A stretch of 64,000 nucleotides of DNA from an uncultured Ectothiorhodospiraceae bacterium (GTDB lineage Bacteria > Pseudomonadota > Gammaproteobacteria > UBA6429 > Thiohalophilaceae), in contig CAMYMU010000019.1 in assembly GCA_947259575.1 (NCBI GenBank), positions 62,001-126,000 on the forward strand, written 5' to 3'. Position numbers and translations under genes: made by a program. The notes beneath the pieces are model-generated. The model worked only from the letters and a program-made list of their open reading frames with translations, had not been told where the DNA came from and did no database searches. Of this stretch, positions 14,744 through 36,358 are shown piece after piece. Position 1 is the first letter of the stretch, and each line of letters begins with the position of its first letter.

Positions 14744-14903
14744 GTGACCTCCTGAGTAGTGTCAGTCTGAAATTAAAATCTAAAAAATTACGTGCTCAAT
14801 CATCTGCATGTCTATGATTTTTAAATAATCTTTCTACACGTATAGTATGTTATTTCTCTGCATTTCGGTATTGGGAGATGAATCGTCCCTGACGAACTGC
14901 AAA

Positions 14904-15188: not shown

Positions 15189-15206
15189 AGTCTATTACCT
15201 TATCGT

Positions 15207-18642: not shown

Positions 18643-20554
18643 TTTCCTCTCCTTGTTCAGCACCTTCTTGTTGGACTTTCTTGTCTTTTTCGAGGATCAG
18701 GCTGTCATAAAGACGGGCGATGCCAAAGCGAGCACGAACATGATAGTTTTCTAACTGCTGACGACGCTTGATTAAACCGGCCTGTGCTAGTTTTTGAATA
18801 TAACGTTCCTGTTTGCTGATGGCAGAGTCCAGTCTTGCGATCAGGTTGCGGATGCGTTGCTTAGACCAGGTGATCTTCTTGTCATAGCCTTCAAAAAACT
18901 TTGGTGCATTATTGGCGGCTTTTACCAATGAACGTTTTGCTTTACGTGTTTTTTTGAGCGCACGGTCCAATTCTTTTAAATTGTTATTCGCCGCCCAGAG
19001 TCGTGGGATAAATTCACTTTCCAGTTGAAAGGCGAGAATACCTTTTAGAAAATTATATTTCTCCAGTTCCTCACTCAGATCCTGGGTGGGTGATAATTTA
19101 TCAATTTTCTTTTTAACATTCGTTAATACCAACAGCAGATCATCTTCGTCTTCGGTGACCAGACCAAACACATCATTTTCTTTTTTAATGCGTTTTAAAT
19201 CTGCTGCATACTCATCACGTTGTTTTTGGATACGCGTAATGCTTTGCAAACGTTCATCGCTGGCGACTTCAGGCAGACGTGTGAAGTAGGCCTTGCGGCG
19301 TTCCGATAACATAAGCTCATAGGAGGGTAACTGGGTCTGCCAGTGTTTAAGCACATGTTTCAGATGTAATAGGCTTTGATAATTCTTATAGGCTTCCTGG
19401 AAGGTATTGGTCGCCATCATTTGATTTAGGTATGGGGCGGTTACTGATTTCGGTAAGCCAAAGCTACCTAATGGTAAAGAGGTCTCATCATCGATATTTG
19501 CTGGTCGCATAGCCTCGATTAATTCGCCCCGTTGCACAGCCAACATCACGTCTTCGAGTTTATTGATTTCTTCTGCATAGGCGCCAATGGCAGTTTGATA
19601 ATGCTGCATAGCCAGTCGAGGCTTGCCTAGTTTTTCGATTGTAAAAGGTACCGCGATCAAAGACTCCTGTACCGTGGTATCCAGGGCTTTACGATTTTGA
19701 AGTTCGAGCCAGGGTGTCAGTGCCTCTGTGTATTGTTCTTGATTAGTGTAAGCCCAGCCTAGTCCTAACAACGCTTTGTTTGATAAGGGGCCGGTTAGAC
19801 GTATGCGTTGAAAATGTGAGGCTGCATCCGTTGCGCGGTTATTACGCATGTAGGCAAAACCTAAGGCAAGGTTGGCCTTATCACGTAATGCGTTGAGTTC
19901 GTGGCTAATGCTGAAGGGATTTAAATCACCAACTTCATTTAGTAACTCGGTGCCTTCTTCCAGTTGCCCTGCCTTAACCAAAGCAACGCCGAGATTGAAT
20001 TGTGCATAGGCCTCCCATTCGGAGCTGCCACTAAAGTTTTTTAATACCTCGATCGCCTTGGGGTAGTTCTTCTGTTTCATGTAAACATTAGCAAGCAAGT
20101 GTAGGCGTTCGGCTTCACGTTCTTCAGGTAGAGTATCTTTGATTTTTGTTAGGGCGATTTCAGCCTGAGGGGTATACCCTTTTAGATAACGTAACTTCGC
20201 AATGTAGTACCAGGCTCTATCGTGACTTGCGGGTAGGGTGTCACTGGAGAGTAAGCCCTGGAATAAGTTACTGGCATCATTATGCATGCCATAAGCAAGG
20301 TACAAACCACCAAGTAACAAATTTGGGTCTTCACCTTGAACCTTAATCGGTGAACGCACCTCAGCCACCATTAAGTTAGTGATAGCCGAAAAGTATTTTT
20401 GTTGAAAGAAATTAAATAGCGTTTCGCCATAGCGCAGATCATAGACTTCAGTCGCTTCAAGGGTTTCTTTTTCTTCTTCGGCGTAGACAAGCTGACTGGG
20501 CTGATAGAGCACAGCAGAGGCAAGCAAGAGGCTGACTGAGAGACGTTTGATCAT
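18632..20554 (-). CDS. Exported TPR protein of the motor operon
   Basis: A 640-residue protein with a signal peptide (ends about residue 25, LVYA), then tetratricopeptide-like repeats over roughly 30-330 (AWYYIAKLRYLKGYTPQAEI; FNLGVALVKAGQLEEGTELL; LLGLGWAYTNQEQYTEALTP). The C-terminal half (about 380-620) is strongly helical and charged, probably coiled coil. No catalytic motif is seen. It is second in the operon, 38 bases after the 190-residue protein gene, and is a likely periplasmic scaffold acting with the other two TPR proteins. Confidence 0.78.
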   Translation of the reverse strand: MIKRLSVSLLLASAVLYQPSQLVYAEEEKETLEATEVYDLRYGETLFNFFQQKYFSAITNLMVAEVRSPIKVQGEDPNLLLGGLYLAYGMHNDASNLFQGLLSSDTLPASHDRAWYYIAKLRYLKGYTPQAEIALTKIKDTLPEEREAERLHLLANVYMKQKNYPKAIEVLKNFSGSSEWEAYAQFNLGVALVKAGQLEEGTELLNEVGDLNPFSISHELNALRDKANLALGFAYMRNNRATDAASHFQRIRLTGPLSNKALLGLGWAYTNQEQYTEALTPWLELQNRKALDTTVQESLIAVPFTIEKLGKPRLAMQHYQTAIGAYAEEINKLEDVMLAVQRGELIEAMRPANIDDETSLPLGSFGLPKSVTAPYLNQMMATNTFQEAYKNYQSLLHLKHVLKHWQTQLPSYELMLSERRKAYFTRLPEVASDERLQSITRIQKQRDEYAADLKRIKKENDVFGLVTEDEDDLLLVLTNVKKKIDKLSPTQDLSEELEKYNFLKGILAFQLESEFIPRLWAANNNLKELDRALKKTRKAKRSLVKAANNAPKFFEGYDKKITWSKQRIRNLIARLDSAISKQERYIQKLAQAGLIKRRQQLENYHVRARFGIARLYDSLILEKDKKVQQEGAEQGEENAQ

Positions 20555-20592: not shown

Positions 20593-21165
20593 CTATTCTG
20601 CTTCCCAGACCTTAACTTTAAATTCTGGTTGATGCTTCGATTCCTTGTCGCTGATCTTTAGTTCGACAAATTGTGGTTCGGTTCCCTTGGTGACTTTTAC
20701 TGTAGTTGCTCGCTTATAGTCACGGTCTTTAGGACCCTTACCGACAAAGAAGGCGACCAGTTCATGTTCACCAGAGGTGAGGTTGCCCGTATAGAAGCGA
20801 TGTACACCGCCACGTTTTAATGCTTTGAGTTCTCGTTCGGTGTAAAGATGATTACCAACGACATTATTATTTAAACGTATCTGTACGGAGTCGAGGTCGA
20901 AGGTAATACCCACATCCATGGAGACAAAAACAGTGAACTGTGTATTGGCTGGAAACAGGAGATCTTCTTCAAGCAAAAAGAGGTCACGGTTGAGGTCGAG
21001 GATTTCCTTTTTCAGGTCCTGGATCTGGGTATCGAGTGTCGTCACAGTGCCCTGATCGCCCGCTGCTTCAGGTGTATCCCCTTCGGCGGCCCAGGCCGGT
21101 TGCATTACAAAAAGTGTCAGCATCAGTAAAAACGGGCTGAACAGAGTGGGCGCTAACTTACTCAT
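20593..21165 (-). CDS. Exported coiled-coil/beta protein, first gene of the motor operon
   Basis: A 190-residue exported protein: signal peptide ending PAWA (about residue 27), a helical heptad segment (TLDTQIQDLKKEILDLNRDL, about 43-65), then a beta-rich domain (FTVFVSMDVGITFDLDSVQI; HRFYTGNLTSGEHELVAFFV). I do not recognise a named domain; similar small exported proteins occur next to TolQ/TolR/TPR gene sets in other gammaproteobacteria, as I recall. GGAG lies about 8 bases before the start. A 134-base gap separates it from apbE upstream, where the operon promoter would be expected; no clear promoter was found there. Confidence 0.65.
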   Translation of the reverse strand: MSKLAPTLFSPFLLMLTLFVMQPAWAAEGDTPEAAGDQGTVTTLDTQIQDLKKEILDLNRDLFLLEEDLLFPANTQFTVFVSMDVGITFDLDSVQIRLNNNVVGNHLYTERELKALKRGGVHRFYTGNLTSGEHELVAFFVGKGPKDRDYKRATTVKVTKGTEPQFVELKISDKESKHQPEFKVKVWEAE

Positions 21166-21299: not shown

Positions 21300-22307
21300 T
21301 CACCTTATTGAGGCTGGAGGGTTCGTTTTCTTAGCTTGCGAGGGTGGCATTAACCCCGAGCTGTAATGAATCTTACCAGCGGCATCGATAATCACGGCAT
21401 CAATTCCCTCTAGCCTCTCTGCTAATGCTAACCCTTTAGCGGCCCCTAGTACAAAAAGAGTAGTGGATAAGCCATCTGTTGTAACGGCATCGGGCCCCAG
21501 GACGGTGACGCTGCGTGTCTTGCTTACTGATTTGCCCGTTTTTGGGCTGAGGATGTGGTGGTAACGCACACCATCTTTGATGAAGTATCGTTCATAGTCA
21601 CCGGAGGTGGATACGGCTGTGTCACTCAGGGGAATCACAAGAATGGACTTATCTTTTTTACGTGGATCTCGGATGCCTGTCATCCAGGGACGACCTTTGC
21701 GATCGCCAATGATGCGGCTGTCGCCGCCTGCACTAATCAAGGCCTGTTTAATACCACAATCCTTGATGATGCGAATGCCATTGTCGACTGCGTAACCTTT
21801 GGCGATGCCACCGAGATCGATGCGTACACCCTGTTTGGCAAAGCGTACCGTCGATGCTTTTTTGTCCAGGATAATATGCAGGTAATTGATGCGGTCGAGT
21901 TGAGTTTGAATTTGTTGATCCGATGGCTTCTGGCTTTTCCGGTAATCATATTGATAACCGATACTGGCGAAGGTGATATCAAATGCTCCATCAGAGAGTT
22001 CTGAGAGATGCATGGAACGCTCTATCAACTTAAATAACTCAGGGCTAATTTTAATTGTCTGTTGGGAAGCCTTAGCATTGAGGATCGCCAGCTCACTTTC
22101 TGGCTTATATGGGCTCATCAAGCTGTCTATGCGCCTCATTTCCTGCATGACTTGTCTAGTACACGTTTTTGACAACTTTTCTGAGTGTGACCAGAGCTCG
22201 ACATGAATAGGTGTACCCATAATGGCTTCAGACTGTATATACCACTCAGCGTGAGTTGGGCTACAACTGAGCAGAACTAGTAGGAGAAGGGCAACGCGTT
22301 TCATCAT
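21300..22307 (-). CDS. apbE: FAD:protein FMN transferase
   Basis: A periplasmic flavin transferase that attaches FMN through a phosphoester bond to Thr/Ser of target proteins. About 335 residues with a signal peptide (MMKRV..., ending THA). Family motifs are IMGTPIHVELW near the start, RIDLGGIAKGYAVDNG in the centre and TTDGLSTTLFVLG near the C-terminus, the latter providing the magnesium/FAD site. The start is chosen at the ATG directly before the signal peptide; an ATG at 22328 would add seven residues. No Nqr or Rnf operon is nearby, so its substrate may be in the adjacent redox locus (inference). Confidence 0.92.
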   Translation of the reverse strand: MMKRVALLLLVLLSCSPTHAEWYIQSEAIMGTPIHVELWSHSEKLSKTCTRQVMQEMRRIDSLMSPYKPESELAILNAKASQQTIKISPELFKLIERSMHLSELSDGAFDITFASIGYQYDYRKSQKPSDQQIQTQLDRINYLHIILDKKASTVRFAKQGVRIDLGGIAKGYAVDNGIRIIKDCGIKQALISAGGDSRIIGDRKGRPWMTGIRDPRKKDKSILVIPLSDTAVSTSGDYERYFIKDGVRYHHILSPKTGKSVSKTRSVTVLGPDAVTTDGLSTTLFVLGAAKGLALAERLEGIDAVIIDAAGKIHYSSGLMPPSQAKKTNPPASIR

Positions 22308-22346
22308 GGCATCATAACCCAGAGCCATGATTTATAAAATGCAGAT

Positions 22347-22415: not shown

Positions 22416-24137
22416 TTAAGCAGGTTGTGCCGCTAAAATCTGATGAGTCCCAGTATTAACAGATGACATTCCGTTAAATATGGTGAGCTCATCCAACGCA
22501 GTAGTTCCACCCAAACCATGTTGTGGGAAGGCAGAATTGAAGTCGCTCACGAAGGTACCGAAATCGTTCACGGTGTCATAGTGCAGCGCCATATAGTTGA
22601 GTAGCACTGTGTTCACGAGTGAAGTCACACCATTGGCTGCCTGGATGGGGAAGCCACCTGGAGTTCTAGCACCTGTCTCAAGCGCACCGTTGGCACGGAA
22701 GTAGCCGAGCTGTTGGCGATTGTCCTGAGCTGCTTGAGTACCACCACGAATCGTTGTTCTACCGCGTGGGTCATAAACAAAGATCAGTGATGCAGCACCA
22801 CCCGAGTTATCACCTGTCCACTGACCCTTACCACCAGGAAGTGCTATGGTGCCCGAGTTAATGGCCGTATCGTCTGGATTACCGTTACTAAATACCGAGC
22901 CGTCACTGAAGACATAAACCATTAATGGGCGACCGACACGGTGTGCATATTCGATGGCAGCACCAATACAACGTCCAGCACGAATATCTCGAAGCTCACC
23001 GGCAATACGGTCACCAGTGTGATAATCGTAGCCACCCATGGTGACGCAGCCTGCGCCTGACAATGTGCTGGTGACCAGCTTCATGACAGATGAAACTTTG
23101 CGGAACTCAGAGCCATCTCGACTATTAGCGTTGAACTCTGCGTTGGTAAAGATACCGGTTGCATCATCAACGATAAATGGGTCTGTGCTAGGATTCAGGG
23201 CCTGTGGGTTACCAAAGTTCTCAGCCACATCTGCAGCTTTAACATAACCACAACGGATTAACCTTCTGAGATCTTCATTTGCACCACCAAGGTTAGGATC
23301 GAGTCCAGCAACTTGTGAGTTACTGATACGTGCAACGGCTTCCATCACACTGGTAGCATCAGCCTGACTTAAAATAGACAGCAATTCACCCGTGTCAACC
23401 AGGCCGGTTACATCGCTTGGACGATCAACCTTGGTTGGACGAATTTCTGGATTAATGTAAATCGCTGGAGCCATAGAGCGGCCACCTGATTCAGATGCCT
23501 GAGAACCTACCAGGCTTAACAGACTGCCACGCGCACCCAATCCGTTTGCACCAGCCATGGCGATGCCATACATAGGATTGTGTGGGTTGTTGCCTGTATC
23601 GTTATCAGAACGGGCGGGGATAATTGCGCCATTTGTTAGTGCTTGTGCACCAACAGACATTTTATCCAACATACCTGCGAGCAGTGCACTCTCTGAGTGG
23701 AAGGTTAGTCCAATAGCACTGTTGGTGTTCAATCCAGGTGTGCTTGGATTAGGCAGACGATCACCAGGTAATCCTAAGCGACTGTAGCCTGCGGTTGTAA
23801 CCGCAGAGGTATCAAGCTGACCACCAGGACCACCGACCATGGCATTGGAACCAGCCAGGTTAGCGCCACCTGCTAGATCGAAACACAAGAAAGGTACTTT
23901 TAATGCACCGCCTGCGCCAACGACGCAGTTAGTACCTGTATCCATTGCTTGTACGTCTGCTGAAAGGGCATGAGCCGCTTCAGGGTGCAAGAACATGTTA
24001 AGCAAGGAACTCCCTGTGACCATTGCACCACCACCGATGAAACCCTGGCGGATGAAGTCCCGGCGTGTTACTGGACGAGGATGATCCGCATGTAACAATG
24101 GAGCATCTGGATCTACTATTTTCTGTTTTTTAGCCAT
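22416..24137 (-). CDS. Tat-exported DUF1501-like protein
   Basis: A 573-residue protein with a twin-arginine signal: VTRRDFIRQGFIGGGAMVTG at about residues 23-42, then a hydrophobic stretch and an AHA cleavage region. The body resembles DUF1501 proteins: a Gly-rich LCFDLAGGANLAGSN early block, a FHSESALLAG block, and a late MGGYDYHTG followed by RPLMVYVFSDGSV, like the DxH and V-x-x-SeFGR areas of that family. DUF1501 proteins are paired with heme c proteins in planctomycetes, as here. Its function is unknown; a folded, cofactor-carrying periplasmic protein is likely because Tat exports folded proteins. Last gene of the minus-strand trio. Confidence 0.72.
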   Translation of the reverse strand: MAKKQKIVDPDAPLLHADHPRPVTRRDFIRQGFIGGGAMVTGSSLLNMFLHPEAAHALSADVQAMDTGTNCVVGAGGALKVPFLCFDLAGGANLAGSNAMVGGPGGQLDTSAVTTAGYSRLGLPGDRLPNPSTPGLNTNSAIGLTFHSESALLAGMLDKMSVGAQALTNGAIIPARSDNDTGNNPHNPMYGIAMAGANGLGARGSLLSLVGSQASESGGRSMAPAIYINPEIRPTKVDRPSDVTGLVDTGELLSILSQADATSVMEAVARISNSQVAGLDPNLGGANEDLRRLIRCGYVKAADVAENFGNPQALNPSTDPFIVDDATGIFTNAEFNANSRDGSEFRKVSSVMKLVTSTLSGAGCVTMGGYDYHTGDRIAGELRDIRAGRCIGAAIEYAHRVGRPLMVYVFSDGSVFSNGNPDDTAINSGTIALPGGKGQWTGDNSGGAASLIFVYDPRGRTTIRGGTQAAQDNRQQLGYFRANGALETGARTPGGFPIQAANGVTSLVNTVLLNYMALHYDTVNDFGTFVSDFNSAFPQHGLGGTTALDELTIFNGMSSVNTGTHQILAAQPA

Positions 24138-24165
24138 TTGTTATCACCTTAGGTTCATCAATTCG

Positions 24166-26886
24166 TTACTGTAACAACATGGGCGAGCTGGCAATGGCCG
24201 CTGCACAGGTTGCTTTCATGATTTCAAGACTGCGATTAACACTACAGTTACCGCTACAAGTGTTGTTTAGTTCATCCATTAGAGTGTATAGATGAGTACG
24301 TACTGTTGCTGCAGTTGGCATAGTGCTTAGCTCGGTTGCACCATCGACATTAAACACACGTTCTAACAGCGGGTTAATAACATCATCACGCTCAGCACCG
24401 GTAAATGGATACTGTGGCGATGACCCACTGAAGGTAATGTTCGGGAAGTAAGTCGCCCGCGGGATGGTTGTGCCATTGTCATCAACCAGTGCGCTACAGT
24501 ATTCAATAGCCAGCTGTGTTACGGCCATTTGCTGTGAAGGTACATAGGTCTGGATATCTGAGCTGCCTGGCAGACCCTGTTTTACTTCCACGTAAGTACC
24601 GTCGTTAGCCGCACCGGTGTTATCAATGGTGTCATCCTGACCGATTACATCAGTGGTCCTATCGACACCTGTCATTTTCGACATTGTGGCATTGATTTCC
24701 TCAAAGCTGCGAATCATTACCGCTGACTTCGCAGTTGGAGTTATTGGATCCGGCGTGGTTGAGAAGCTCTCAGTGTAATCCTTGGTCGGCGTAGTCGATG
24801 CCAGACGTTCGAAGGTAAGGAACAATGAATCCGGCGGTGTACCACTTGGACCATTTTCCAGGGCGAAGACAGTACCGATGTTAGATAGCAGCTGGCCCGT
24901 TGCCGAGTCATAAGTACCATCAATCGTTACATCCATGGAAGCAAAGCCCTGGCCAGTCGATGCCTCACGACCATTGATGCCGATGCGCATGTTCTGGATC
25001 TGGGTACCTGTCATGTCTGCATTTGGATCCAGGTTAATGAAGCGTGGATAGGCGAACAAGAAACTCTTGTTATCCCACTGTGCTGCTTCAAGATAGATGT
25101 AGCATAGTGGCGCATAATCTGGGTTACGCACTGGATCGTTCTCGATACCATCTGCATCAGGTCCGCGACATTCTGGCCCAAGATGCTGACCTACCTCAAA
25201 CATCAGATAGAATTTCTGACCTACGCCAACATCGAAGTTCTGGCGAATCTGTGGGTCAGTCAAGGCACGGTTATGGATAGACAGCATACGAATCGTACCT
25301 GACCAAGGGCGACTGAAGTCAACTTCGTTACCCAGTGCCAAAGCCGAACCCGTTGCCCAGTTAGACAGACCTTCAGCCTCAACCGGGTCCATATCATCAC
25401 GGAAGGTACCGTTTACATAGATACGACGACCATTGGTTGGGTCATAAGTCAGGACAACATGTTGCAGTGCTGCCTGTGCATCTTCGTCATCAGGGTCAGT
25501 CGTCAGCAGAGGTGTACCATCTGCATTTGTCTCAGTAGAAATGTTTCGGTTGAACGCCTCGTAGTTATACATAGTCTGACCAAGCAGGAAGTTACGCTCA
25601 GTTGCTGAACGACCATATGTAACAATATTGGCATTCGCCTGAGCGACGTCACCAGGTAAGATCCAGGCTTCAATCGTGTATTCACCAGTTGAAGTGATCA
25701 TCTGGTGTAACTTGTCACTGTCACTCGGTGTGGCCTGCGCTTTGGCAGAGGATGTGATGAAACGAATTCCATAGCTACCCAACCACTCATAATCAGTGCC
25801 TGGGTTACCGAACAATGTCAGGTTAGCCGCTGGTGAAACTCCGCTTCGGTCAATGACAGTGTCGCCGCCGTTCAATTTGAATTCGTATAAGGCGATCTGG
25901 CTTGCCTCGAAACGATTACCACCAGAAGCTGTAATACCATCTTCGAACAGGGTAACCGCACGACTCTTGACCATGCTGTCAAGCTCTGCGGTGTCAGGTG
26001 GTGCGACTGCATTTACTGCTGCGATGTAGAAGTTAATCGCGGTCAGCATATCGGCGGCTGCACCAGAGCAGTCACCTGAGTTAGGCACGGTGTCACGTGG
26101 TGAAGGCCAACATTGGTGACCACCTGTGACACGGGTATAGAAACGTGATAACGCCGCAGTGTTCAGGTTCAGCAGCGGAACGCTACTCGCGGTGTCATAA
26201 GATGTTTGTGCATCTGCAACTGCAAATTGTGGTGATATAGGTTGAGCACTTTGGGTTGGGTTAGGTACGTGACAACCTGCGCAGTTAGCAGTAACCAGCT
26301 CGTGAATTGTGAGTCCGCCATTACCTGTGTAATAGGCAGGATTGACGTTTGGATCAAAGACGATAACTGGCGCGGGATCTTCATCTACAGGAGGGCTAAG
26401 TTGTATACCACGTCCACCTGTACCAGCACGGTCATTTAACCAGTTACCTATCCAGAGTTCTAATTGAGCAGCACAAGCTGATTGGGTGCTTTCCCAGCAA
26501 AAGTGACCTGCTGGAGTACTGGTAAATTTCGTTACAAAGGTTGAGCTGGCGATATCTGCGGGATTAACCAGACCGTTAGCAACCAGGTAAGCATCATTTA
26601 CGTCTGTTTCGTCTGCAAAGTCAGAGTTACCCTGGCCACCCACGTCGTGACAAGAACCACAACGATTGTCGCCGCGAACGTTATCCCAGAATTGAATACG
26701 GAATGCCTGAATATCAGCATTGTTTGGGGCAGGACCTGTATAGGTTGTGGCACCACCGCCACTGCCGCCGCCGTTGTTGTTGTTATTTGGATTGTTGCTG
26801 GTGTTTTCAGTGTTACTCGCACCGCCACCACAAGCCGACACAACGAATGCACCGGCCAACACTAACATTGGAATCAGCTTACGCAT
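24166..26886 (-). CDS. Lipoprotein with two heme c sites and a LamG domain
   Basis: About 906 residues. The ATG at 26886 follows an excellent ribosome site (AAAGGAGC, then four bases); an upstream ATG at 26928 is less likely. The lipoprotein signal ends VVSAC, then comes an Asn/Gly-rich linker. Two CxxCH heme motifs follow: RCGSCHDVGGQ (about residue 85) and CAGCHVP (about 205). A LamG/concanavalin-like domain (about 330-550) shows EYTIEAWILPGD, RRIYVNGTFRDD and MLSIHNRALTDPQI. The C-terminal third has no recognised domain. Probably an outer-membrane-attached electron carrier with a binding domain. Confidence 0.8.
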   Translation of the reverse strand: MRKLIPMLVLAGAFVVSACGGGASNTENTSNNPNNNNNGGGSGGGATTYTGPAPNNADIQAFRIQFWDNVRGDNRCGSCHDVGGQGNSDFADETDVNDAYLVANGLVNPADIASSTFVTKFTSTPAGHFCWESTQSACAAQLELWIGNWLNDRAGTGGRGIQLSPPVDEDPAPVIVFDPNVNPAYYTGNGGLTIHELVTANCAGCHVPNPTQSAQPISPQFAVADAQTSYDTASSVPLLNLNTAALSRFYTRVTGGHQCWPSPRDTVPNSGDCSGAAADMLTAINFYIAAVNAVAPPDTAELDSMVKSRAVTLFEDGITASGGNRFEASQIALYEFKLNGGDTVIDRSGVSPAANLTLFGNPGTDYEWLGSYGIRFITSSAKAQATPSDSDKLHQMITSTGEYTIEAWILPGDVAQANANIVTYGRSATERNFLLGQTMYNYEAFNRNISTETNADGTPLLTTDPDDEDAQAALQHVVLTYDPTNGRRIYVNGTFRDDMDPVEAEGLSNWATGSALALGNEVDFSRPWSGTIRMLSIHNRALTDPQIRQNFDVGVGQKFYLMFEVGQHLGPECRGPDADGIENDPVRNPDYAPLCYIYLEAAQWDNKSFLFAYPRFINLDPNADMTGTQIQNMRIGINGREASTGQGFASMDVTIDGTYDSATGQLLSNIGTVFALENGPSGTPPDSLFLTFERLASTTPTKDYTESFSTTPDPITPTAKSAVMIRSFEEINATMSKMTGVDRTTDVIGQDDTIDNTGAANDGTYVEVKQGLPGSSDIQTYVPSQQMAVTQLAIEYCSALVDDNGTTIPRATYFPNITFSGSSPQYPFTGAERDDVINPLLERVFNVDGATELSTMPTAATVRTHLYTLMDELNNTCSGNCSVNRSLEIMKATCAAAIASSPMLLQ

Positions 26887-26957
26887 CGTTGCTCCTTTCC
26901 CGTTGAAATTAATATTTTTATGCTTCATTTTTTCGTCTCCAGAAACTTGTGTACGGC

Positions 26958-28274
26958 TTACAGGTTAGGATTACTGTTCATACAGTTAATCACAGAGTCA
27001 GTGAACACTGTACGCATGTCGTAAGTGCTATTGACGAAATTTGTAGTCAAGGTCTGTAAGGTTGCCTCAGCTGGGTCACTCAAACAGACATGACGATAAA
27101 CCTTTAGAACCTGGCAGCGTGCAAAGGCATTGGTATTAGCCAATTCTTGTCCGAGCAGTGCTGCATTACCTACTGCTGCACCTGGTGTACTTGCTGGGAC
27201 ACTTGTTACTGCCTGTGGTGTGTTATTAGCCCAACCTAACTTAGCGTTTTGGCCAGTGCGCCAGTAATTGGTCCATCTGTCGTCTGGTGTTACCCATCCA
27301 TATTCGAAGTTGGTTGGATTGATGCGGTGTTTGTGAGTAACACGGGTAGGCGTAGTAATATCAACACCATCGACCTGATAAGTAATCGGGGTGGTTTGAT
27401 ACAACATGGATTGAGTGTCTGCGTCATTATTGTCATCAAAGATGTTCGGGCCCCACTGATGATAAGCATAAGCACCGGCCATTCCATCCATGCCTGCGTG
27501 ACAACCAACACAGTTATTCAGGAAGATTTCACTATCGCCACCTGGGCTGCGTGATACATCCTGACGGACATAGTTATTAGTACGGGTAATATCTTTCACT
27601 TCTTCCAGGTCAGTACAGAGATAGTTCATCATGGTGAAGCGGAACATTGCCCGGTTGGTACCGCCATAAAAGAAGGCACGAGCGTTGGCGCGAGTTGTGG
27701 TAATACCTGCAACGGCCTCAGGAGGCTGGCCGATGGTGGTAGACTGAGTCTGGCTTTGTAACACAGTGCGCAGATTCAGGTTTTGATGTTCCATCTGGAT
27801 ATAGTGGTCGTTATTGCTGTTGGAATAAGGAAATGAGTTAAGAGCAGGATCAACGCCGACGTAAATAAGGTCGTCTGACAGGATGCCGCGGAAGTCCCTG
27901 CCATCACGGATATAACCGATAATGGTTGCAGCCGTATCATTCAACGGCGCAAACACTGTTTGGTCTTCGTTGGTCCAGGGGATCACCATGTTTTTAACTT
28001 TTACGTTAAGGAAGTTGGGATCATTCATCGCTCTGGTTACAGCGGCTGCGACATTACCACCGGTTATGTCTTGCTCCATTTGATCAAGGACATCATTATT
28101 TGGACCGGCGATTGTTTGAGGAGGAACCCCAGCAATTCGGTCATGGATGAACTTGGCTTTTTCACGATCACCCGCCGATGCGGTATTGATTGCCAGTGAA
28201 AACACACAAACCGCACTCGCTGCCGCCAGGGCTAACCGTCCAGTTTGTTTGTTAAGCAAGTTTGCAATGCTCAT
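26958..28274 (-). CDS. Exported monoheme c protein
   Basis: About 438 residues. The ATG at 28274 has GGGAAG upstream and gives a good signal peptide (ending TASA); the ATG at 28328 would put the CRP-type palindrome only 6 bases before the start. One heme motif is present, NCVGCHAGMDGM (about 255-266). The surrounding sequence has a DUF1588/cytochrome-like feel (YLCTDLEEVKD, MRTVFTDSVINCMNSNP), but I do not recognise a family. First gene of the trio monoheme protein, LamG-heme lipoprotein, DUF1501-like protein. Probably periplasmic. Confidence 0.72.
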   Translation of the reverse strand: MSIANLLNKQTGRLALAAASAVCVFSLAINTASAGDREKAKFIHDRIAGVPPQTIAGPNNDVLDQMEQDITGGNVAAAVTRAMNDPNFLNVKVKNMVIPWTNEDQTVFAPLNDTAATIIGYIRDGRDFRGILSDDLIYVGVDPALNSFPYSNSNNDHYIQMEHQNLNLRTVLQSQTQSTTIGQPPEAVAGITTTRANARAFFYGGTNRAMFRFTMMNYLCTDLEEVKDITRTNNYVRQDVSRSPGGDSEIFLNNCVGCHAGMDGMAGAYAYHQWGPNIFDDNNDADTQSMLYQTTPITYQVDGVDITTPTRVTHKHRINPTNFEYGWVTPDDRWTNYWRTGQNAKLGWANNTPQAVTSVPASTPGAAVGNAALLGQELANTNAFARCQVLKVYRHVCLSDPAEATLQTLTTNFVNSTYDMRTVFTDSVINCMNSNPNL

Positions 28275-28333
28275 AAGCTTCTTCCCAAAGTTGTTTTTAT
28301 TCGTACATTTAAAAAATTGCTCCGTCATTTGGA

Positions 28334-28349
28334 TGTGAACTACATCACA
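28334..28349. promoter_or_regulatory. Perfect CRP-type palindrome
   Basis: TGTGA-ACTACA-TCACA is an exact match to the TGTGA-N6-TCACA core recognised by CRP-family regulators. Its centre is about 67 bases upstream of the chosen start of the monoheme gene, a position compatible with activation, and about 250 bases upstream of the HzsA-like gene. The regulator itself is not in the window. Confidence 0.65.
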
Positions 28350-28483
28350 AAGCAGAGCACGAATGTTTCATAACGTTAATTTAGTCTGAAACCAGATAAA
28401 TTTTCATGAATTTGTTCACAGATCCGTCAGAAAATCGCGTTCATACTTCTTTTCGGTCGGAGAAGGCCTATTTATGAGAGCTG

Positions 28484-28550
28484 TATACCAATTTTGTGAC
28501 GGCGTCAGTATTATGATTAAAGATGTTACACATATATACCAATACTGACG
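28484..28550. repeat. Repeat cluster upstream of the HzsA-like gene
   Basis: Two direct copies of TATACCAAT (28484-28492 and 28535-28543), a palindrome TGACG-G-CGTCA (28497-28507), and a perfect 10-bp inverted repeat CGTCAGTATT (28503-28512) / AATACTGACG (28541-28550). The elements overlap within 67 bases, ending 43 bases before the start codon. They look like operator half-sites for a dimeric or multimeric regulator. Confidence 0.55.
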
Positions 28551-28593
28551 ATGTGATTGTTAAGATATTCATTACCTATTAAGAGAGAAATGT

Positions 28594-31392
28594 ATGGTTA
28601 GGTTCAATAGTGAGAACGAGTTCACCTTTTTCAAGGCTGCGGGACTTTTGGGAGGTCTGTTACTCCTGTCGGCCTGTGGTGGCGGTGGCAGTGCCAGCGA
28701 CCCTGACCCTACGGTGAATGAACAGCCTATCGCCTATGTCCAGCGTGCCGCTCCTATAGACAACAACAACAATCTGATCGAAAACGATTTGCAGGACCCT
28801 GCTGAGTTTCGACCAGGCGCTCACCTCATCGTTAAGAACGTGGCTTCACAGGGCGCCTCAACAATCGATGTCACTGAGGCACTGATTGGCGATACGGGTG
28901 ATGTGCGTGACCCCGAGTTCAATTTTGATGGCACGAAATTACTGTTCTCGTTGCATATGGAAGACAATAACAACGACCCGCAGATTAACTGGGATATCTA
29001 TGAATATGATCTGACAAGTCCGCTTAGTCAGGTCGCGGGCAGCGAGAACCCCAGACGGGTTATGTTTGTGGACAATGATATTCAGGGCCATGATATCGCT
29101 CCGTCTTATATGCCCGGTAATCGAATTATTTTCTCTTCCACTCGTGCAGCAAGAACCGGCTCAATATCACTAGCAGAGGGTAACGGCGCGTTCTCTCCGA
29201 CTATCGAAGCGACAGATAGCGATATACATGCATTCAATATACATACTATGGATGCGACGACTGGTGGCAATATCAAGCAGATTAGTTTCAATATGAGCCA
29301 TGACCTGGACCCCAGTATTATTCGTAATATCAGTGGTTATGAAGGGCATGTGATGTTTACCCGCTGGGAAAACTCACCGGGCCGAAATCAGATGAGCCTG
29401 TACATGATGAAACCAGATGGTACGGAAGTAACCCATTTGTATGGTGGACATAGTCACCAGACCGGGACAGGTGGCAGTACGATTCAGTTTTCTACCCCAA
29501 GAGAAAATTCCAGTGGTGATGTTGTCGTAGTCGCCAGAGCATTCTCGAACACCCAGGACGGTGGTGACCCCATGGTTATCAACGTTAGCGGCTATTTAGA
29601 TAATACTGTCCCAAAAACAAACAATGCCGGTGGTGTTGGCCCAGCCCAGACCTCAGTCTCTGGCGGTGCGATTCTCACCGATGCCAATGCTATTTCATTA
29701 ATGGGCCGTTATGGCTCGGTTGTCCCTTTACTGGATGGTACCAATCGCGCGCTAGCCAGCTACAGTCTGTGTCTCGCCGACATCCTTGACCCTAATACAA
29801 TGATGGTGCTTGAAACCCGGATTTGTTCAGACCCCTTGGTTAACCTGGCCGATGTGAATACAGTCGTCGCCCCACCACGCTACGGTATCTATATACTAGA
29901 CCTGAGTACGAACTCGATTACACCGATTACCGTTGCCCAACCAGACACTTATTACACTGATGTTGCGATAGCCCAAGGTTACACAGACAACGGCACTTTT
30001 ATCGATGATACATTTAACCTTTCGACACCCAAGCTAGGCACTCTGCATATCCGCAGTGTTTATGACCTGGATGGCGCCTTCGATCCTATGGGCAGTACTT
30101 CGACCAGCCTTGCGCAATTGATGGACCCTACCTTGTCGACAGGGGATCCGGCCAATAATCCAGGTTTGATAGAACGCCCCGCGATGTTCCTACGTATCGT
30201 GAAAGGTACCTATTTACCTGATGACGATGTGCGTGACTTCGATGAAGCCGCTTATGGTTTAAATGGCTCAGGACAGTTAATGCGCCAGATCATTGGATAT
30301 GCACCTATCGAGCCGGACGGTTCTGTTCGGATTAACGTTCCTGCGGATGTGCCATTGTCATTCAGTATTCTGGATAAAAATGGACGCCGTGTCGCAGGTA
30401 CATCTCGTCATAACAACTGGATTACGGTGCGCCCTAACGAAGAGGTGACCTGCCATGGCTGTCATGTGCATAATTCAGGTAATCCTCATGGCAACCCTAC
30501 CGCTGTACCGCGTCTTGGATTAAATGTGGGTTCCGTTGGTGGTACCTGGCCAAACACCAATGCGGCGATTGTGAATCTGGCTAATAATGAAGATACCATG
30601 GCTATGGCTAAGACAACGATTCTCGGTAGTCCTAGCCTGAAACCAAGCGTTGATATCAGAGCTGCCGATGTCTGGACAGACCCGAATGATCGTACGATAG
30701 ATGATCCTATCGTATTCACTTATGACAATACCGCTTTACAGGGCGTCAGCACGACCAAACCAGTGAACCTGGGCGGCTGCCTCGACAATGGTGCGGTCAA
30801 TGGTTGGAATGAAAACTGCCGGGTTACGGTGAATTATCCTGCCCATATACAGCCGATTTTTGAAGTTGCTCGCCAGGATAGTGGGGCAAACAATATCCAG
30901 TGTATTAGCTGCCATACGACGTATGCAGCCGCCTTACAGGTCCCTGCAGGTAAGTACCAGCTGGATTTGACTCAGAATAGTCCGGATGCAATGGGCAATT
31001 CCGTTGATACCCAGAACCCAGATTATCATAAATCCTATATTGAACTGGTTGCGGGCGACAACATTCTTGAGGTTGCCGGTGCGGCGTTAGTAGATGAGGA
31101 ATTCCCGGCTGGAAGTGGCGTGACACGCTCTGTGTTCTTTGGAACAGGCATTGGTAGTGTAATGACGCGTGGTAGCGCCAATGGCAGTACCCCCTTCTTT
31201 GAGATCTTTACTGAGGCTTACTACAACGCAAATATTGCTGATGTGAACCGCATGCCGCACTGGGATCCAAACGGTGGTGGCGCCGGAATTGGCAGACCCT
31301 GGCTGACCTTAGGTGAGCAAAAATTAATATCAGAGTGGATCGACATCGGTGCTCAGTACTATAACAGCCCGTTTGCAGGCCCTGTAAACTGA
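28594..31392 (+). CDS. HzsA-like lipoprotein with two heme c sites
   Basis: A 932-residue lipoprotein (lipobox LLSAC). The N-terminal half looks like a TolB/PD40-type beta-propeller (FNFDGTKLLFSLHM, WDIYEYDL, MPGNRIIFSSTR). About 520-640 matches the hydrazine-synthase-alpha-like middle domain: IIGYAPIEPDGSVRINVPAD, LSFSILDKNGRRVAG, then VRPNEEVTCHGCHVH, which contains the first CxxCH. A second motif, CISCHTTY, lies near residue 770. The family name comes from anammox HzsA, but no HzsB or HzsC genes are here, so hydrazine chemistry must not be inferred. AAGAGAG precedes the ATG. Probably an extracytoplasmic redox protein, divergent from the monoheme trio. Confidence 0.8.
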   Translation: MVRFNSENEFTFFKAAGLLGGLLLLSACGGGGSASDPDPTVNEQPIAYVQRAAPIDNNNNLIENDLQDPAEFRPGAHLIVKNVASQGASTIDVTEALIGDTGDVRDPEFNFDGTKLLFSLHMEDNNNDPQINWDIYEYDLTSPLSQVAGSENPRRVMFVDNDIQGHDIAPSYMPGNRIIFSSTRAARTGSISLAEGNGAFSPTIEATDSDIHAFNIHTMDATTGGNIKQISFNMSHDLDPSIIRNISGYEGHVMFTRWENSPGRNQMSLYMMKPDGTEVTHLYGGHSHQTGTGGSTIQFSTPRENSSGDVVVVARAFSNTQDGGDPMVINVSGYLDNTVPKTNNAGGVGPAQTSVSGGAILTDANAISLMGRYGSVVPLLDGTNRALASYSLCLADILDPNTMMVLETRICSDPLVNLADVNTVVAPPRYGIYILDLSTNSITPITVAQPDTYYTDVAIAQGYTDNGTFIDDTFNLSTPKLGTLHIRSVYDLDGAFDPMGSTSTSLAQLMDPTLSTGDPANNPGLIERPAMFLRIVKGTYLPDDDVRDFDEAAYGLNGSGQLMRQIIGYAPIEPDGSVRINVPADVPLSFSILDKNGRRVAGTSRHNNWITVRPNEEVTCHGCHVHNSGNPHGNPTAVPRLGLNVGSVGGTWPNTNAAIVNLANNEDTMAMAKTTILGSPSLKPSVDIRAADVWTDPNDRTIDDPIVFTYDNTALQGVSTTKPVNLGGCLDNGAVNGWNENCRVTVNYPAHIQPIFEVARQDSGANNIQCISCHTTYAAALQVPAGKYQLDLTQNSPDAMGNSVDTQNPDYHKSYIELVAGDNILEVAGAALVDEEFPAGSGVTRSVFFGTGIGSVMTRGSANGSTPFFEIFTEAYYNANIADVNRMPHWDPNGGGAGIGRPWLTLGEQKLISEWIDIGAQYYNSPFAGPVN

Positions 31393-31528: not shown

Positions 31529-32281
31529 ATGCGAAAATGTTTCATCAGCTTGTTTCTCCTTGTTAGCTCGCTAAGTGTTAGCCCGTTAAGCAATGCCGAT
31601 GAACCAGAAGAGCATTTTGTCAAAGTGGCCGATCCCTACATCGAAATGCACACGGGGGCAGGTCGAGGTTATCCCATCTTTTACGTTGCTGCCCGTGGTG
31701 AGTGGGTACAGCTATTATATAGAAAGACAGACTGGTTCAGGGTCAAGACTGAAGATGGTAAGGAAGGTTGGGTCAGTGCGGCGCAATTGTCGATGACCTT
31801 GAATCCCTCGGGTCAACGTGTCGATATACGTGATCCGAATGAAAAAGATTTTGTGGTCCGTGATTGGGAATATGGTGCCTCGATCGGTGATTTCGAAGGA
31901 TTATCCGTGATCAGCTTTTATGGTGGTTATCACTTCACTGAGAATATCTCCAACGAAATTATAATCTCACAGGCCTCGGGCACGGTATCAAGCAAAACGG
32001 TTTTGAGTTTACTCAATATCATTCACGAGCCGTTTCCTGAATGGAAAGTTTCACCATTTTTTACCTTGGGAACAGGCTGGATCAGAACCGAACCCAAATC
32101 GACCCTGGCCGTTACCCGGGATCGCACCGATCAATACGCCAACTACGGGCTTGGTGTGCGCATGCACATAACCAAACGATTTTTACTCCGGGTGGAATAC
32201 AAAAATTACGTAATCTTCACCAGCCGAGATGACAACGAGGAAATAGCAGAATGGAAAGCAGGTTTCGGGTTTTTCTTTTAA
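31529..32281 (+). CDS. SH3-domain outer-membrane beta-barrel protein
   Basis: A 250-residue exported protein: signal peptide (ends about SNA), a bacterial SH3-like domain (about 30-95; YIEMHTGAGRGYPIFYVAAR, WFRVKTEDGKEGWVSAAQL), then about eight amphipathic strands ending in GFGFFF, typical of an outer-membrane barrel of about 150 residues. This architecture is known from the myxobacterial/gammaproteobacterial outer-membrane barrel domain group. SH3 domains of this kind may contact cell wall. No clear ribosome site precedes the ATG. Its end overlaps the next barrel gene by 31 bases. Confidence 0.78.
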   Translation: MRKCFISLFLLVSSLSVSPLSNADEPEEHFVKVADPYIEMHTGAGRGYPIFYVAARGEWVQLLYRKTDWFRVKTEDGKEGWVSAAQLSMTLNPSGQRVDIRDPNEKDFVVRDWEYGASIGDFEGLSVISFYGGYHFTENISNEIIISQASGTVSSKTVLSLLNIIHEPFPEWKVSPFFTLGTGWIRTEPKSTLAVTRDRTDQYANYGLGVRMHITKRFLLRVEYKNYVIFTSRDDNEEIAEWKAGFGFFF

Positions 32282-32955
32282 TTACAGCCTTTGCTCTGTT
32301 GGCTTCGCCTGCGCTGGTACCGATGGCAGCAGCGGCAGATGAAAAGCCAGCTGAAAAAACAGAACAAAAGGCCGGTGATAACCCTGTTAACGAAGTGATC
32401 CAGCAGGACCCGGTTATTCAGCCGGAGGTTAAGCGCCGTGAAGTTAAACAGGCCGATGTCGAGACAGAAAACTTTGAAATAGGTGTGTTTGCAGGATTAT
32501 TGAGTATCGAAGATTTTGGGACCAACCCTGTCTACGGTGTCAGTCTTGACTACCATGTAACTGAAGATCTGTTTATACAAGGCCGATTGGGTTATTCAGA
32601 AGCGGGTACTACCAGTTTCGAACGGCTTGGCGGTGGTGTGACCTTACTGGGGGATAGAGAATATATCTACTACGATGTGGCCCTGGGTTATAACTTATTA
32701 CCGGGTGAGGCCTTCATAACACGTAATACGACTTATAACACTTCGCTGTATCTCATCGCCGGAGCAGGGAATACTGAATTTGCAGGGGACAACTTTTTTA
32801 CAATCGTCTGGGGCGCAGGTTATGCCGTGACAGCCTCAGACTGGTTTGCGTTACACATGGATTTTCGTGATCACATGTTTGACATTGATATCACCGGAGA
32901 AGACAAAACAAGTCACAACTTGGAAGCTTCACTTAATATAACCTTCTACTTTTAG
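32251..32955 (+). CDS. Outer-membrane beta-barrel protein
   Basis: A 234-residue exported protein. A signal peptide (ends AAAA) is followed by a charged Glu/Lys/Pro/Val linker (about 28-70) and a barrel domain with strand pattern FEIGVFAGLLSIEDFG, YGVSLDYHVTEDLFIQGRLG and EYIYYDVALGYNLL, and the terminal LNITFYF with C-terminal Phe, as needed for outer-membrane insertion. Very similar in layout to the barrel half of the preceding gene, suggesting duplication. Its start lies inside that gene (31-base overlap) with GAGG upstream, so the two are translated together. Confidence 0.8.
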   Translation: MESRFRVFLLITAFALLASPALVPMAAAADEKPAEKTEQKAGDNPVNEVIQQDPVIQPEVKRREVKQADVETENFEIGVFAGLLSIEDFGTNPVYGVSLDYHVTEDLFIQGRLGYSEAGTTSFERLGGGVTLLGDREYIYYDVALGYNLLPGEAFITRNTTYNTSLYLIAGAGNTEFAGDNFFTIVWGAGYAVTASDWFALHMDFRDHMFDIDITGEDKTSHNLEASLNITFYF

Positions 32956-32970: not shown

Positions 32971-33489
32971 ATGAAACAATTAGCAAGATTTATAGCACTT
33001 ACAGTATTTGTCATTTCAGCCTCGTTTGGCATGAGTAATGTTGCCAATGCCTCGCAAAAGACCCTGGATGGCTCACCTGCACCAGACTTTACTTTGAAGA
33101 GTCGCAGCGGAAAGAACCTGCGCTTGAGTGATTACCGTGGTCAGGTTGTAATGGTAAACTTTTGGGCCTCATGGTGTGGTCCCTGCCGTCAGGAAATGCC
33201 AATTCTAGAAAAGATGTTTAAGCGCTATGGCAAACTGGGTTTTGTGATTCTCGGCGTGAATACTGAGCAGGACACAAGCAAGGCGAATGCCTATTTGCGC
33301 GACATTAAAGTTTCGTTCCCTATCCTGTACGATACCACTAGCAAAGTCAGCAAGACATATAATGTTCAGGCCATGCCGACCACGGTGATCATCGATCGCA
33401 ATGGCAAGATGCGTTATCTACATGCAGGCTATAAATCCGGTTATGAAAAAGACTATAAAAAACAGATCAAAAAGCTGATTCGAGAATAA
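32971..33489 (+). CDS. TlpA-family thiol-disulfide oxidoreductase
   Basis: A 172-residue exported thioredoxin-fold protein: signal peptide (ends ANA), then PDFTLKSRSGKNLRLSDYRG, the active site WASWCGPCRQEMP, and the cis-Pro region AMPTTVIIDRNG. It should reduce disulfides in the periplasm. A 15-base gap after the barrel gene and the ribosome site GAGGG indicate an operon. In this setting it may keep the cysteines of the heme c proteins or of the DUF4266 lipoprotein tail reduced (inference). Confidence 0.92.
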   Translation: MKQLARFIALTVFVISASFGMSNVANASQKTLDGSPAPDFTLKSRSGKNLRLSDYRGQVVMVNFWASWCGPCRQEMPILEKMFKRYGKLGFVILGVNTEQDTSKANAYLRDIKVSFPILYDTTSKVSKTYNVQAMPTTVIIDRNGKMRYLHAGYKSGYEKDYKKQIKKLIRE

Positions 33490-33507: not shown

Positions 33508-33729
33508 ATGAAACGTTTCGTATTGATTATTACAACAGTATATATTTTCTCGGGTTGCAGCTCATGGGAGCCCTGGGTGAAACCCTATGAGCGAGAGAAC
33601 CTGTCTGATCCGATCATGAATGTCGCGCGCGACCCTATATCTGCGGGCTACTACCATCACGTGTTTGAGACACGTGAATCGGCCAGGGGTGCGGGTGCGG
33701 TTACCGGCGGTGGTTGTGGTTGTAACTAA
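33508..33729 (+). CDS. DUF4266 small lipoprotein
   Basis: A 73-residue lipoprotein: signal and lipobox IFSGC (Cys about residue 17), then WEPWVKPYERENLSDPIM, the HHVFETRESARGAGAVTG block and the extreme C-terminus GGGCGCN. These are the hallmarks of DUF4266. The function is unknown. AGGA lies before the ATG. The same gene neighbours, a thioredoxin before and DUF3570 after, recur with this family together with apbE, as I recall, and apbE is present 11 kb away here. The Gly/Cys tail could bind metal or be modified. Confidence 0.88.
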   Translation: MKRFVLIITTVYIFSGCSSWEPWVKPYERENLSDPIMNVARDPISAGYYHHVFETRESARGAGAVTGGGCGCN

Positions 33730-34938: not shown

Positions 34939-35063
34939 GCACTGTTTTTGCCCACAAACGATGCTAAGTCGTTAATCTAATTTAAGAAAATCCCGTATTG
35001 AGCAAGGCGGGCGAATTTCGTAGGATAGAGGGACCGCAACATAATGAAGGGGGCGCGGAGAAG

Positions 35064-36356: not shown

Positions 36357-36358
36357 GC

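What the first reader, a model, noticed from the sequence alone, without database searches (positions are those of the whole stretch)
22416..31392. Divergent heme c/HzsA-like/DUF1501-like locus
Four extracytoplasmic proteins sit around one control region: a monoheme protein, a LamG lipoprotein with two CxxCH motifs, a Tat-exported DUF1501-like protein, and, facing them, an HzsA-like lipoprotein with two CxxCH motifs. Five heme c sites, two lipoprotein anchors and one Tat-folded protein suggest an envelope redox complex. I know of no described system with this set in gammaproteobacteria. The HzsA name does not mean hydrazine chemistry, because HzsB and HzsC are absent.
Basis: partly seen in the sequence, partly recalled or inferred. 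Interest (0 to 1): 0.8.

Follow-up and report, generated by a model that had tools for sequence, protein, structure and literature searches.

The report
Gliding-motor relative with heme-flavin arm
The four reported heme and export genes are part of a much larger conserved gene island in which a relative of the bacterial gliding motor sits beside a set of flavin, thiol and heme proteins of the cell envelope, which offers a way to find out what such motors do in bacteria that are not known to glide.

Summary
In detail: a divergent locus with a monoheme protein, a diheme LamG lipoprotein, a Tat-signal protein and a diheme HzsA-like lipoprotein (five CxxCH). The four genes lie in an island of about 20: ApbE, an Agl-Glt-type proton-channel machine (ExbB, two ExbD, TonB/GltG-like, TPR proteins, a 190-aa protein), two beta-barrels, TlpA, DUF4266 and DUF3570, the known ApbE substrate. 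Among the 80 best-matching named loci, 52 of 53 with enough upstream DNA carry the trio facing HzsA, and 60 of 60 with enough downstream DNA carry both barrels, DUF4266 and DUF3570. In 369 genomes, all 43 with HzsA domain and Tat protein also have the 190-aa protein and DUF3570. Exceptions show modules: the trio occurs alone, and a three-heme HzsA clade lacks it. HzsA is related to HZS-alpha but lacks the Tyr591 ligand (0 of 101). The Tat protein has an alkaline-phosphatase-superfamily fold; DUF1501 membership is unproven. Most likely: a proton-driven trans-envelope machine with a flavin/thiol/heme redox arm; substrate unknown. The motor core and the flavin set were each known as orphans; my searches found no paper joining them.

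The parts
26958..28328 (-). Mono: monoheme (CVGCH) exported protein, 456 aa; relatives match PSD2/DUF1585 and PSCyt3/DUF1588 weakly
24166..26928 (-). LamG: lipoprotein with two CxxCH sites and a Laminin_G_3 domain, 920 aa
22416..24137 (-). D1501: twin-arginine protein, alkaline-phosphatase-superfamily fold, DUF1501-like by motif only
28329..28593 (.). intergenic region between the divergent transcription units
28594..31392 (+). HzsA-like lipoprotein: beta-propeller, HZS_alpha middle domain with heme site, C-terminal heme site
31529..32281 (+). SH3OMP: SH3 domain plus outer-membrane beta-barrel
32251..32955 (+). OMPmyx: outer-membrane beta-barrel TIGR04565
   Evidence: 9.4e-44
32971..33489 (+). 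TlpA/ResA-like thioredoxin with CxxC
33508..33729 (+). DUF4266 lipoprotein with C-terminal CxC
   Evidence: (1.5e-20)
33757..34938 (+). DUF3570: predicted flavinylated outer-membrane protein, DxxTSAS site
21300..22328 (-). ApbE: FAD:protein FMN transferase
   Evidence: 4.2e-83
20593..21165 (-). P190: conserved first gene of the gammaproteobacterial Glt-like core, no Pfam family over its cut-off
18632..20554 (-). TPR640: TPR protein of the Glt-like core
15784..18663 (-). TPR959: TPR lipoprotein of the Glt-like core
15207..15830 (-). TPR lipoprotein, GltE-like (6.3e-13, under cut-off)
14078..14743 (-). ExbB/TolQ/AglR-like proton channel subunit
   Evidence: MotA_ExbB 8.8e-30
13575..14081 (-). 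ExbD/TolR-like subunit 1
13044..13562 (-). ExbD/TolR-like subunit 2
12087..13043 (-). TonB/GltG/GltJ-like transducer with AgmX/PglI C-terminal domain
   Evidence: (3.7e-20, over cut-off)
7783..11181 (-). cNMP-binding plus rhodanese coiled-coil protein; neighbour in part of the family, membership unsure

Best explanation
The locus encodes one trans-envelope machine made of three modules. (1) A motor core: an ExbB/ExbD proton channel and a TonB/GltG-like transducer with TPR scaffold proteins and P190, related to the Agl-Glt gliding machinery, which carries proton-motive force to the outer membrane. (2) An outer-membrane redox arm: electrons or thiols pass between TlpA, the CxC lipoprotein DUF4266, the ApbE-flavinylated barrel DUF3570 and the diheme HzsA-like lipoprotein, with SH3OMP and OMPmyx as barrels. 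(3) A separable planctomycete-type trio, monoheme protein, diheme LamG lipoprotein and Tat-exported alkaline-phosphatase-fold protein, which feeds or drains that arm and binds the substrate through LamG. Shown: gene content, heme sites, conserved linkage and co-occurrence, profile and fold relationships. Inferred: physical complex, electron path, direction, and that the substrate is a surface or extracellular polymer, probably a glycan, moved or processed by the motor while it is oxidised or reduced.
For: Whole-island synteny in one family: of 20 neighbourhoods, Mono faces HzsA in 17, ApbE and a Glt part are present in 17 (the other 3 are short contigs), and all five genes SH3OMP to DUF3570 in 19 (the other ends at a contig edge). 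Wider: of 80 named loci, the best matches kept by the scan, all three trio genes in 52 of 53 with 6.5 kb upstream; SH3OMP, OMPmyx, DUF4266, DUF3570 in 60 of 60 with 4 kb downstream, TlpA in 44 of 60. A Glt part is within about 10 kb in 19 of 35, and the other 16 genomes all have P190 further off. In 369 genomes of the class: HzsA domain 57, D1501 50, P190 83, DUF3570 95; all 43 with the first two have all four; in 32 of the 43 HzsA and D1501 lie within 12 kb. In 20 P190 stretches from places without HzsA, a TPR gene of the core follows in 20 and ExbB is seen in 19, so P190 marks the core. The redox label is clustered on the core tree: the 16 unlinked of 71 rows need 4 changes against 14.6 in shuffles, 0 of 500 as low. 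GltG, GltE and AgmX hits. DUF3570 is a tested ApbE substrate elsewhere (PMC8238504, passages), and the aligned D-x-x-[ST]-[GSA]-A-[ST] site is kept in 86 of 86. The genome has CcmF and TatC.
Against: The published flavinylation motif [ST]GA[ST] is found anywhere in only 16 of 86 DUF3570 rows and at the aligned site in 7; the window has TSAS, so flavinylation here is untested. ApbE is within about 10 kb in only 8 of 35 wider loci and TlpA is missing in 16 of 60. Glt cores without the redox set make up 17 of 20 stretches fetched from places without HzsA, the trio exists alone, and HzsA is broken in G073 and replaced by a short lipoprotein in G074, so the parts can work apart. In 11 of 43 genomes HzsA and D1501 are not within 12 kb; 8 of these are on different contigs of the assemblies. 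No electron path or interaction was measured. Nothing in the data names the substrate.
Confidence: 0.57

Rival explanations
1. Two or three independent envelope systems that share a neighbourhood: a Glt-type motor, a flavin/thiol redox set and a planctomycete-type cytochrome trio, kept together by co-regulation or joint transfer, with no joint machine.
For: Trio alone in G140, G355 and G322, and 362 kb from HzsA in G083; HzsA without the trio in G033, G034, G036, G095, G164, G281, G305 and L091; Glt cores without the redox set in 17 of 20 stretches; no Glt part within about 10 kb in 16 of 35 loci.
Against: Where the Glt part is not near, the genome still has P190 in 16 of 16 cases, and 43 of 43 genomes carry all four markers, which simple hitch-hiking does not predict.
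Confidence: 0.23
2. A flavin-heme conduit for extracellular electron transfer across the outer membrane, with the motor only for assembly.
For: Flavin barrel, three predicted outer-membrane lipoproteins of which two carry heme sites, thioredoxin; some HzsA and LamG relatives match MtrC/MtrF-type heme domains weakly (4 of 15; 3 of 22).
Against: Only five heme sites, fewer than in known long-range multiheme wires (recalled); no multiheme porin pair among the island proteins scanned; cultured carriers such as Marinobacter, Pleionea and Povalibacter are, from recall, aerobic heterotrophs.
Confidence: 0.12
3. One reading: a free-standing complex of the four proteins only.
For: The four genes face each other and recur.
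Against: SH3OMP, OMPmyx, DUF4266 and DUF3570 are as constant as the four (60 of 60); HzsA keeps them when the trio is absent.
Confidence: 0.05
4. A nitrogen-chemistry enzyme related to hydrazine synthase.
For: HZS-alpha homology of the whole protein (3.7e-19 with the family profile).
Against: No Tyr near the heme alpha-I motif in 101 of 101 rows; no beta or gamma subunit match among the island proteins scanned.
Confidence: 0.02

Closest known systems
Agl-Glt core complex of non-gliding Gammaproteobacteria (Luciano et al. 2011, PMC3169522)
   Same: [quoted passage not shown] the match to P190 is inference)
   Different: The passages read name no HzsA-like, cytochrome, ApbE or DUF3570 partner; gliding add-on genes were not sought here
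ApbE-DUF3570-thioredoxin-DUF4266 clusters (Meheust et al. 2021, PMC8238504)
   Same: Same four proteins, DUF3570 flavinylated by ApbE (passages)
   Different: Passages report DsbD and VIT1 partners; 'hydrazine' and 'DUF1501' occur 0 times in its main text; here HzsA, barrels, trio and Glt core are added and the motif is mostly SSAS/TSAS (75 of 86)
PVC-type PSCyt/PSD cytochromes with Laminin_G_3 and neighbour families (He et al. 2017, PMC5615132)
   Same: PSCyt3/PSD2-like part, LamG-type carbohydrate-binding module, constant neighbour families; function unknown (passages)
   Different: Split over two proteins, one a lipoprotein; neighbour is a divergent AP-fold protein; tied to HzsA and Glt in Gammaproteobacteria
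Hydrazine synthase alpha subunit and its non-anammox homologs (PMC12758564)
   Same: Propeller, middle heme domain, C-terminal heme domain; loss of Tyr591 as in the published clades I-III (passages)
   Different: Lipoprotein without a known beta-gamma partner nearby; 'gammaproteobacteria' and 'Pseudomonadota' occur 0 times in that main text
DUF1501 (PF07394)
   Same: AP-superfamily fold, GGxDxH motif
   Different: No Pfam hit; DHG replaced by invariant D443-N444; profile comparison 9.5%

Membership tests
Agl-Glt core complex | ExbB-like plus two ExbD-like proton-channel subunits | tested here: met
   MotA_ExbB 8.8e-30, ExbD 1.4e-14 and 8.7e-16
Agl-Glt core complex | GltG-type TonB-like transducer | tested here: met
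   AgmX/PglI C-terminal domain 3.7e-20 over cut-off; GltG model 6.3e-18 but far under its equivalog cut-off (64.7 of 650 bits)
Agl-Glt core complex | TPR proteins (GltC/D/E type) in the same operon | tested here: met
   order; GltE 6.3e-13 under cut-off; no GltC or GltD match by name
Agl-Glt gliding machine | gliding add-on genes and gliding motility | not tested
   add-on genes were not searched for; motility cannot be tested by sequence
ApbE-DUF3570 set | ApbE, DUF3570, thioredoxin, DUF4266 together | tested here: met
ApbE-DUF3570 set | [ST]GA[ST] flavinylation motif in DUF3570 | tested here: inconclusive
   window has DNITSAS; strict motif anywhere in 16 of 86, at the aligned site in 7 of 86, relaxed aligned site in 86 of 86; 7 of 10 DUF3570 proteins from outside the island have D..[ST]GA[ST], 3 do not
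Hydrazine synthase alpha | HZS_alpha middle domain and homology along the protein | tested here: met
   PF18582 in 15 of 15 members; whole-protein 3.7e-19, of which the middle stretch passes alone and the propeller and C-terminal stretches are weak (i-E 0.19 and 0.029)
Hydrazine synthase alpha | Tyr591 as proximal heme ligand | tested here: not met
   0 of 101 rows have Tyr within 6 residues after the motif
Hydrazine synthase alpha | zinc site with Cys303 | not tested
   that residue was not located in the alignment
Hydrazine synthase complex | beta and gamma subunits | tested here: inconclusive
   no such name among NCBIfam hits of the island proteins scanned; whole genome not searched
DUF1501 | match to PF07394 | tested here: not met
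   0 of 22 members at E<=10
DUF1501 | alkaline-phosphatase-superfamily fold (clan recalled) | tested here: met
   Z up to 12.0, rmsd 4.0, 224 aligned; most of the 50 rows shown are phosphodiesterases, sulfatases, phosphoglycerate mutases or phosphoethanolamine transferases; model pTM 0.78, pLDDT 69
DUF1501 | profile similarity to bona fide members | tested here: inconclusive
   hhalign 9.5% against 5 PF07394 proteins of relatives, few effective sequences; aligned stretch holds GG[WY]DxH
PVC-type PSCyt/PSD protein | PSD2 and PSCyt3 domains | tested here: inconclusive
   PSD2 in 18 of 23, best 6.6e-06; PSCyt3 in 12 of 23, best 0.011, at E<=1; the window protein itself matches neither

The most novel reading that the evidence does not exclude
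A proton-driven motor of the gliding-machine family that is mechanically coupled to a flavin-thiol-heme electron chain at the outer membrane, so that force and redox chemistry act together on a surface polymer: an energised oxidoreductase machine of a kind I found described nowhere, and one role of the Glt core in Gammaproteobacteria not known to glide.
Probability: 0.2. Interest if true: 0.92.

Novelty: new variant of a known kind. Interest (0 to 1): 0.7.

Why it matters
Two published orphans, the Glt core of Gammaproteobacteria not known to glide (2011) and the ApbE/DUF3570/DUF4266/thioredoxin set (2021), turn out to be parts of one conserved island together with a hydrazine-synthase-alpha relative and a planctomycete-type cytochrome trio. 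All four markers co-occur in 43 of 369 genomes of the class panel, spread over 25 family codes. That makes a long-open question testable: what a gliding-type motor does in bacteria not known to glide. Named strains that carry it (Marinobacter aromaticivorans L132, Pleionea mediterranea L131, Povalibacter uvarum L137) make it open to experiment.

Tried and rejected
Hydrazine chemistry: judged unlikely because the heme alpha-I tyrosine is absent in 101 of 101 rows; the Cys303 position was not tested.

A standalone four-protein complex: rejected.

DUF1501 membership of the Tat protein: not shown. The fold search by Foldseek alone had no hit under 0.001, the best being alkaline phosphatases at 2.5e-3; VIA-align supports the AP superfamily.

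Fold of the monoheme protein: model pLDDT 65.7 with residues 241-311 under 50; 27 chains compared, none of use. No fold claim is made.

A third heme in HzsA as repeated compensation for a missing trio: 7 of 8 trio-less rows have three CxxCH, but these 7 form one clade, so it is one event and no independent support; the eighth, L091, has two, and L119 has three in an over-long frame although it has the trio.

Other ApbE targets in the island: D..[ST]GA[ST] sits at no conserved position of 11 other proteins (1 of 77 LamG and 1 of 45 TPR640 rows, none elsewhere).

Viral contigs: no relative found with the window protein. Full-length relatives outside the class: none among 329 genomes of the phylum panel, whose share outside the class is not told; the ten genomes hit from outside the class match N-terminal parts only (positions 15-334 of 873).

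Literature: searches of the held library for DUF3570/DUF4266 (11), AglR/Glt, DUF1501/DUF1800/DUF1552/DUF1592 (25), hydrazine synthase plus DUF1501 (26), DUF3570 plus Glt terms, HZS terms, PF18582/HZS_alpha, DUF1501 plus LamG plus cytochrome, AglRQS plus Marinobacter and DUF3570 plus thioredoxin listed no paper that by title or start of abstract joins these parts; long lists were seen only in part. Most subscription papers are not held.

Full report
What is there. The four genes are real and placed as described. Five CxxCH sites are present and conserved: Mono 18 of 18 and 70 of 70, LamG pair 17 of 17 and 59 of 59 (some genomes are in both sets). HzsA keeps two in 14 of 21 near relatives, three in 3, and one strict CxxCH in 4, where the second site is CxxxCH or CxxxxCH; of 79 wider rows 77 have two, one has three in an over-long open frame (L119) and one has one (L144). 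LamG and HzsA carry lipobox cysteines followed by glycine, so outer-membrane sorting is inferred from the +2 rule (recalled). The genome encodes CcmF and TatC, so heme attachment and Tat export are possible.

It is larger. The minus-strand run continues through ApbE, P190, two large TPR proteins, a TPR lipoprotein, ExbB, two ExbD and a TonB/GltG-like protein; the plus-strand run continues through SH3OMP, OMPmyx (TIGR04565, 9.4e-44), TlpA, DUF4266 (1.5e-20) and DUF3570 (5.9e-29). Several neighbours overlap or lie under 40 bases apart. The TonB-like protein matches the AgmX/PglI C-terminal domain over its cut-off (3.7e-20) and GltG and GltJ under theirs; the TPR lipoprotein matches GltE under its cut-off.

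Recurrence. In the order drawn (40 genomes, one family) 27 have HzsA, 20 have Mono and 36 have TPR640, some of these weakly; every Mono genome has HzsA. Of 20 neighbourhoods fetched, 17 show Mono facing HzsA; in the other three (G033, G034, G036, one genus) ApbE lies directly before HzsA and the trio is missing. In G009, G015 and these three the Glt half follows DUF3570. Of these, 52 of 53 with 6.5 kb upstream have all of Mono, LamG and D1501; the exception is L091. SH3OMP, OMPmyx, DUF4266 and DUF3570 are in 60 of 60 with 4 kb downstream, TlpA in 44. Of 35 with 9 kb on both sides, 19 have a Glt part within about 10 kb and 8 an ApbE. The 16 without a near Glt part all have P190 further off in the genome, and 4 others tested have it too (20 of 20).

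Co-occurrence. In a panel of 369 genomes of the class: HZS_alpha 57, D1501 50, P190 83, DUF3570 95. 43 have HzsA domain and D1501, and all 43 have P190 and DUF3570, over 25 family codes. Related genomes are not independent, so the Fisher values are not probabilities. In 32 of 43 HzsA and D1501 lie within 12 kb; in 3 they share a contig but lie 50 kb or more apart, in 8 they are on different contigs. The 7 HzsA-domain genomes without P190 have matches in open frames of 785 to 1,819 aa. P190 without HzsA is common: 33 genomes. On a tree of P190 plus TPR640 from 71 loci (68 different), the label 'no redox set' (16 rows) needs 4 changes against 14.6 in shuffles, 0 of 500 as low (quick method, several long branches; L161 was counted as linked although its contig ends before HzsA).

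Modularity. The trio occurs alone in G140, G355 and G322, and in G083 far from its HzsA. In G074 a 168-aa lipoprotein frame stands where HzsA should be, and in G073 HzsA is broken into two frames without the middle domain. HzsA without the trio but with ApbE beside it is seen in G164, G281, G305 and the genus of G033; in G095 the trio is missing and no ApbE was seen beside it. These HzsA have a third heme site at the C-terminus and form one clade. In 20 P190 stretches from places without HzsA, TPR640 and TPR959 are found in 19 each, ExbB in 19 and DUF3570 in 3 (L200, L208, L209); none has HzsA or trio genes. L158, from an earlier fetch, is a further case of DUF3570 without HzsA.

The proteins. 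HzsA-like: related to Kuenenia HZS alpha, 3.7e-19 with the family profile; the middle-domain stretch is strong, propeller and C-terminal stretches are weak on their own; 15 of 15 members match HZS_alpha and 9 of 15 PD40. In HZS alpha the heme alpha-I histidine binds zinc and Tyr591 binds the iron (PMC12607021, passages); a 2025 survey found non-anammox homologs that lack this tyrosine (PMC12758564, passages). Here no row of 101 has Tyr within six residues after the motif, so an ordinary heme c site is likelier. Mono: PSD2/DUF1585 in 18 of 23 and PSCyt3/DUF1588 in 12 of 23 relatives at E<=1, weak but recurrent; with LamG it resembles a split form of the PVC proteins that combine PSCyt, PSD and Laminin_G_3 domains (PMC5615132, passages). 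Tat protein: AP-superfamily fold, Z up to 12.0, GGYDYH motif like the GGWDTH of PF07394 proteins, but invariant D443-N444 where those have Asp-His, so a changed metal site is inferred. DUF3570: the aligned flavin site reads SSAS in 50, TSAS in 25, SGAS in 7, SAAS in 3 and TSAT in 1 of 86; strict [ST]GA[ST] occurs anywhere in 16; of 10 DUF3570 proteins from outside the island 7 have D..[ST]GA[ST].

Mechanism. The most economical reading is a proton-driven envelope machine with a redox arm (see best explanation). The Agl-Nfs relative moves a carbohydrate polymer on the spore surface of Myxococcus (PMC3858216, start of abstract in search listings), LamG-type modules can bind glycans (recalled), and the PVC relatives have been linked with carbohydrate use; hence the guess of a glycan substrate. 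This last step is inference only.

Novelty. The Glt core in these bacteria and the ApbE-DUF3570 set are known separately; their union with HzsA and the trio was found in no paper by the ten searches listed under Tried and rejected. I rate it a new variant of a known kind, with a categorically new reading not excluded.

Noticed in passing
window 7783-11181: 1,132-aa protein with cNMP-binding and rhodanese domains and long charged coiled coils, next to the TonB-like gene; matched in part of the family only.
   Followed up: partly
window 34998-37519: Cyclopropane-fatty-acid-synthase-like and geranylgeranyl-reductase-like genes (named by eye from the translations) follow DUF3570 within 60 bases and recur there in some relatives, perhaps lipid genes of the same unit.
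   Followed up: partly
genome G360, contig C1: One genome carries four HZS_alpha matches, in open frames of up to 1,819 aa, a different architecture, and no P190.
   Followed up: no
G286, G212 and G360: DUF3570 matches lie in open frames of 904 to 920 aa, about twice the usual size, possibly fusions.
   Followed up: no
L145 (record titled Halobacteria archaeon MAG): A contig filed under an archaeon holds a gammaproteobacterial-type HzsA (39% in the best segment), most likely a binning error.
   Followed up: no
L094 and L119: L119 has HzsA in a 1,218-aa open frame with three CxxCH; L094 has a match to the cNMP/rhodanese protein 14.3 kb into the locus.
   Followed up: no
window 14744-15206: A 463-base gap between the ExbB-like and TPR lipoprotein genes, while several neighbours in this run nearly touch; content not identified.
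   Followed up: no
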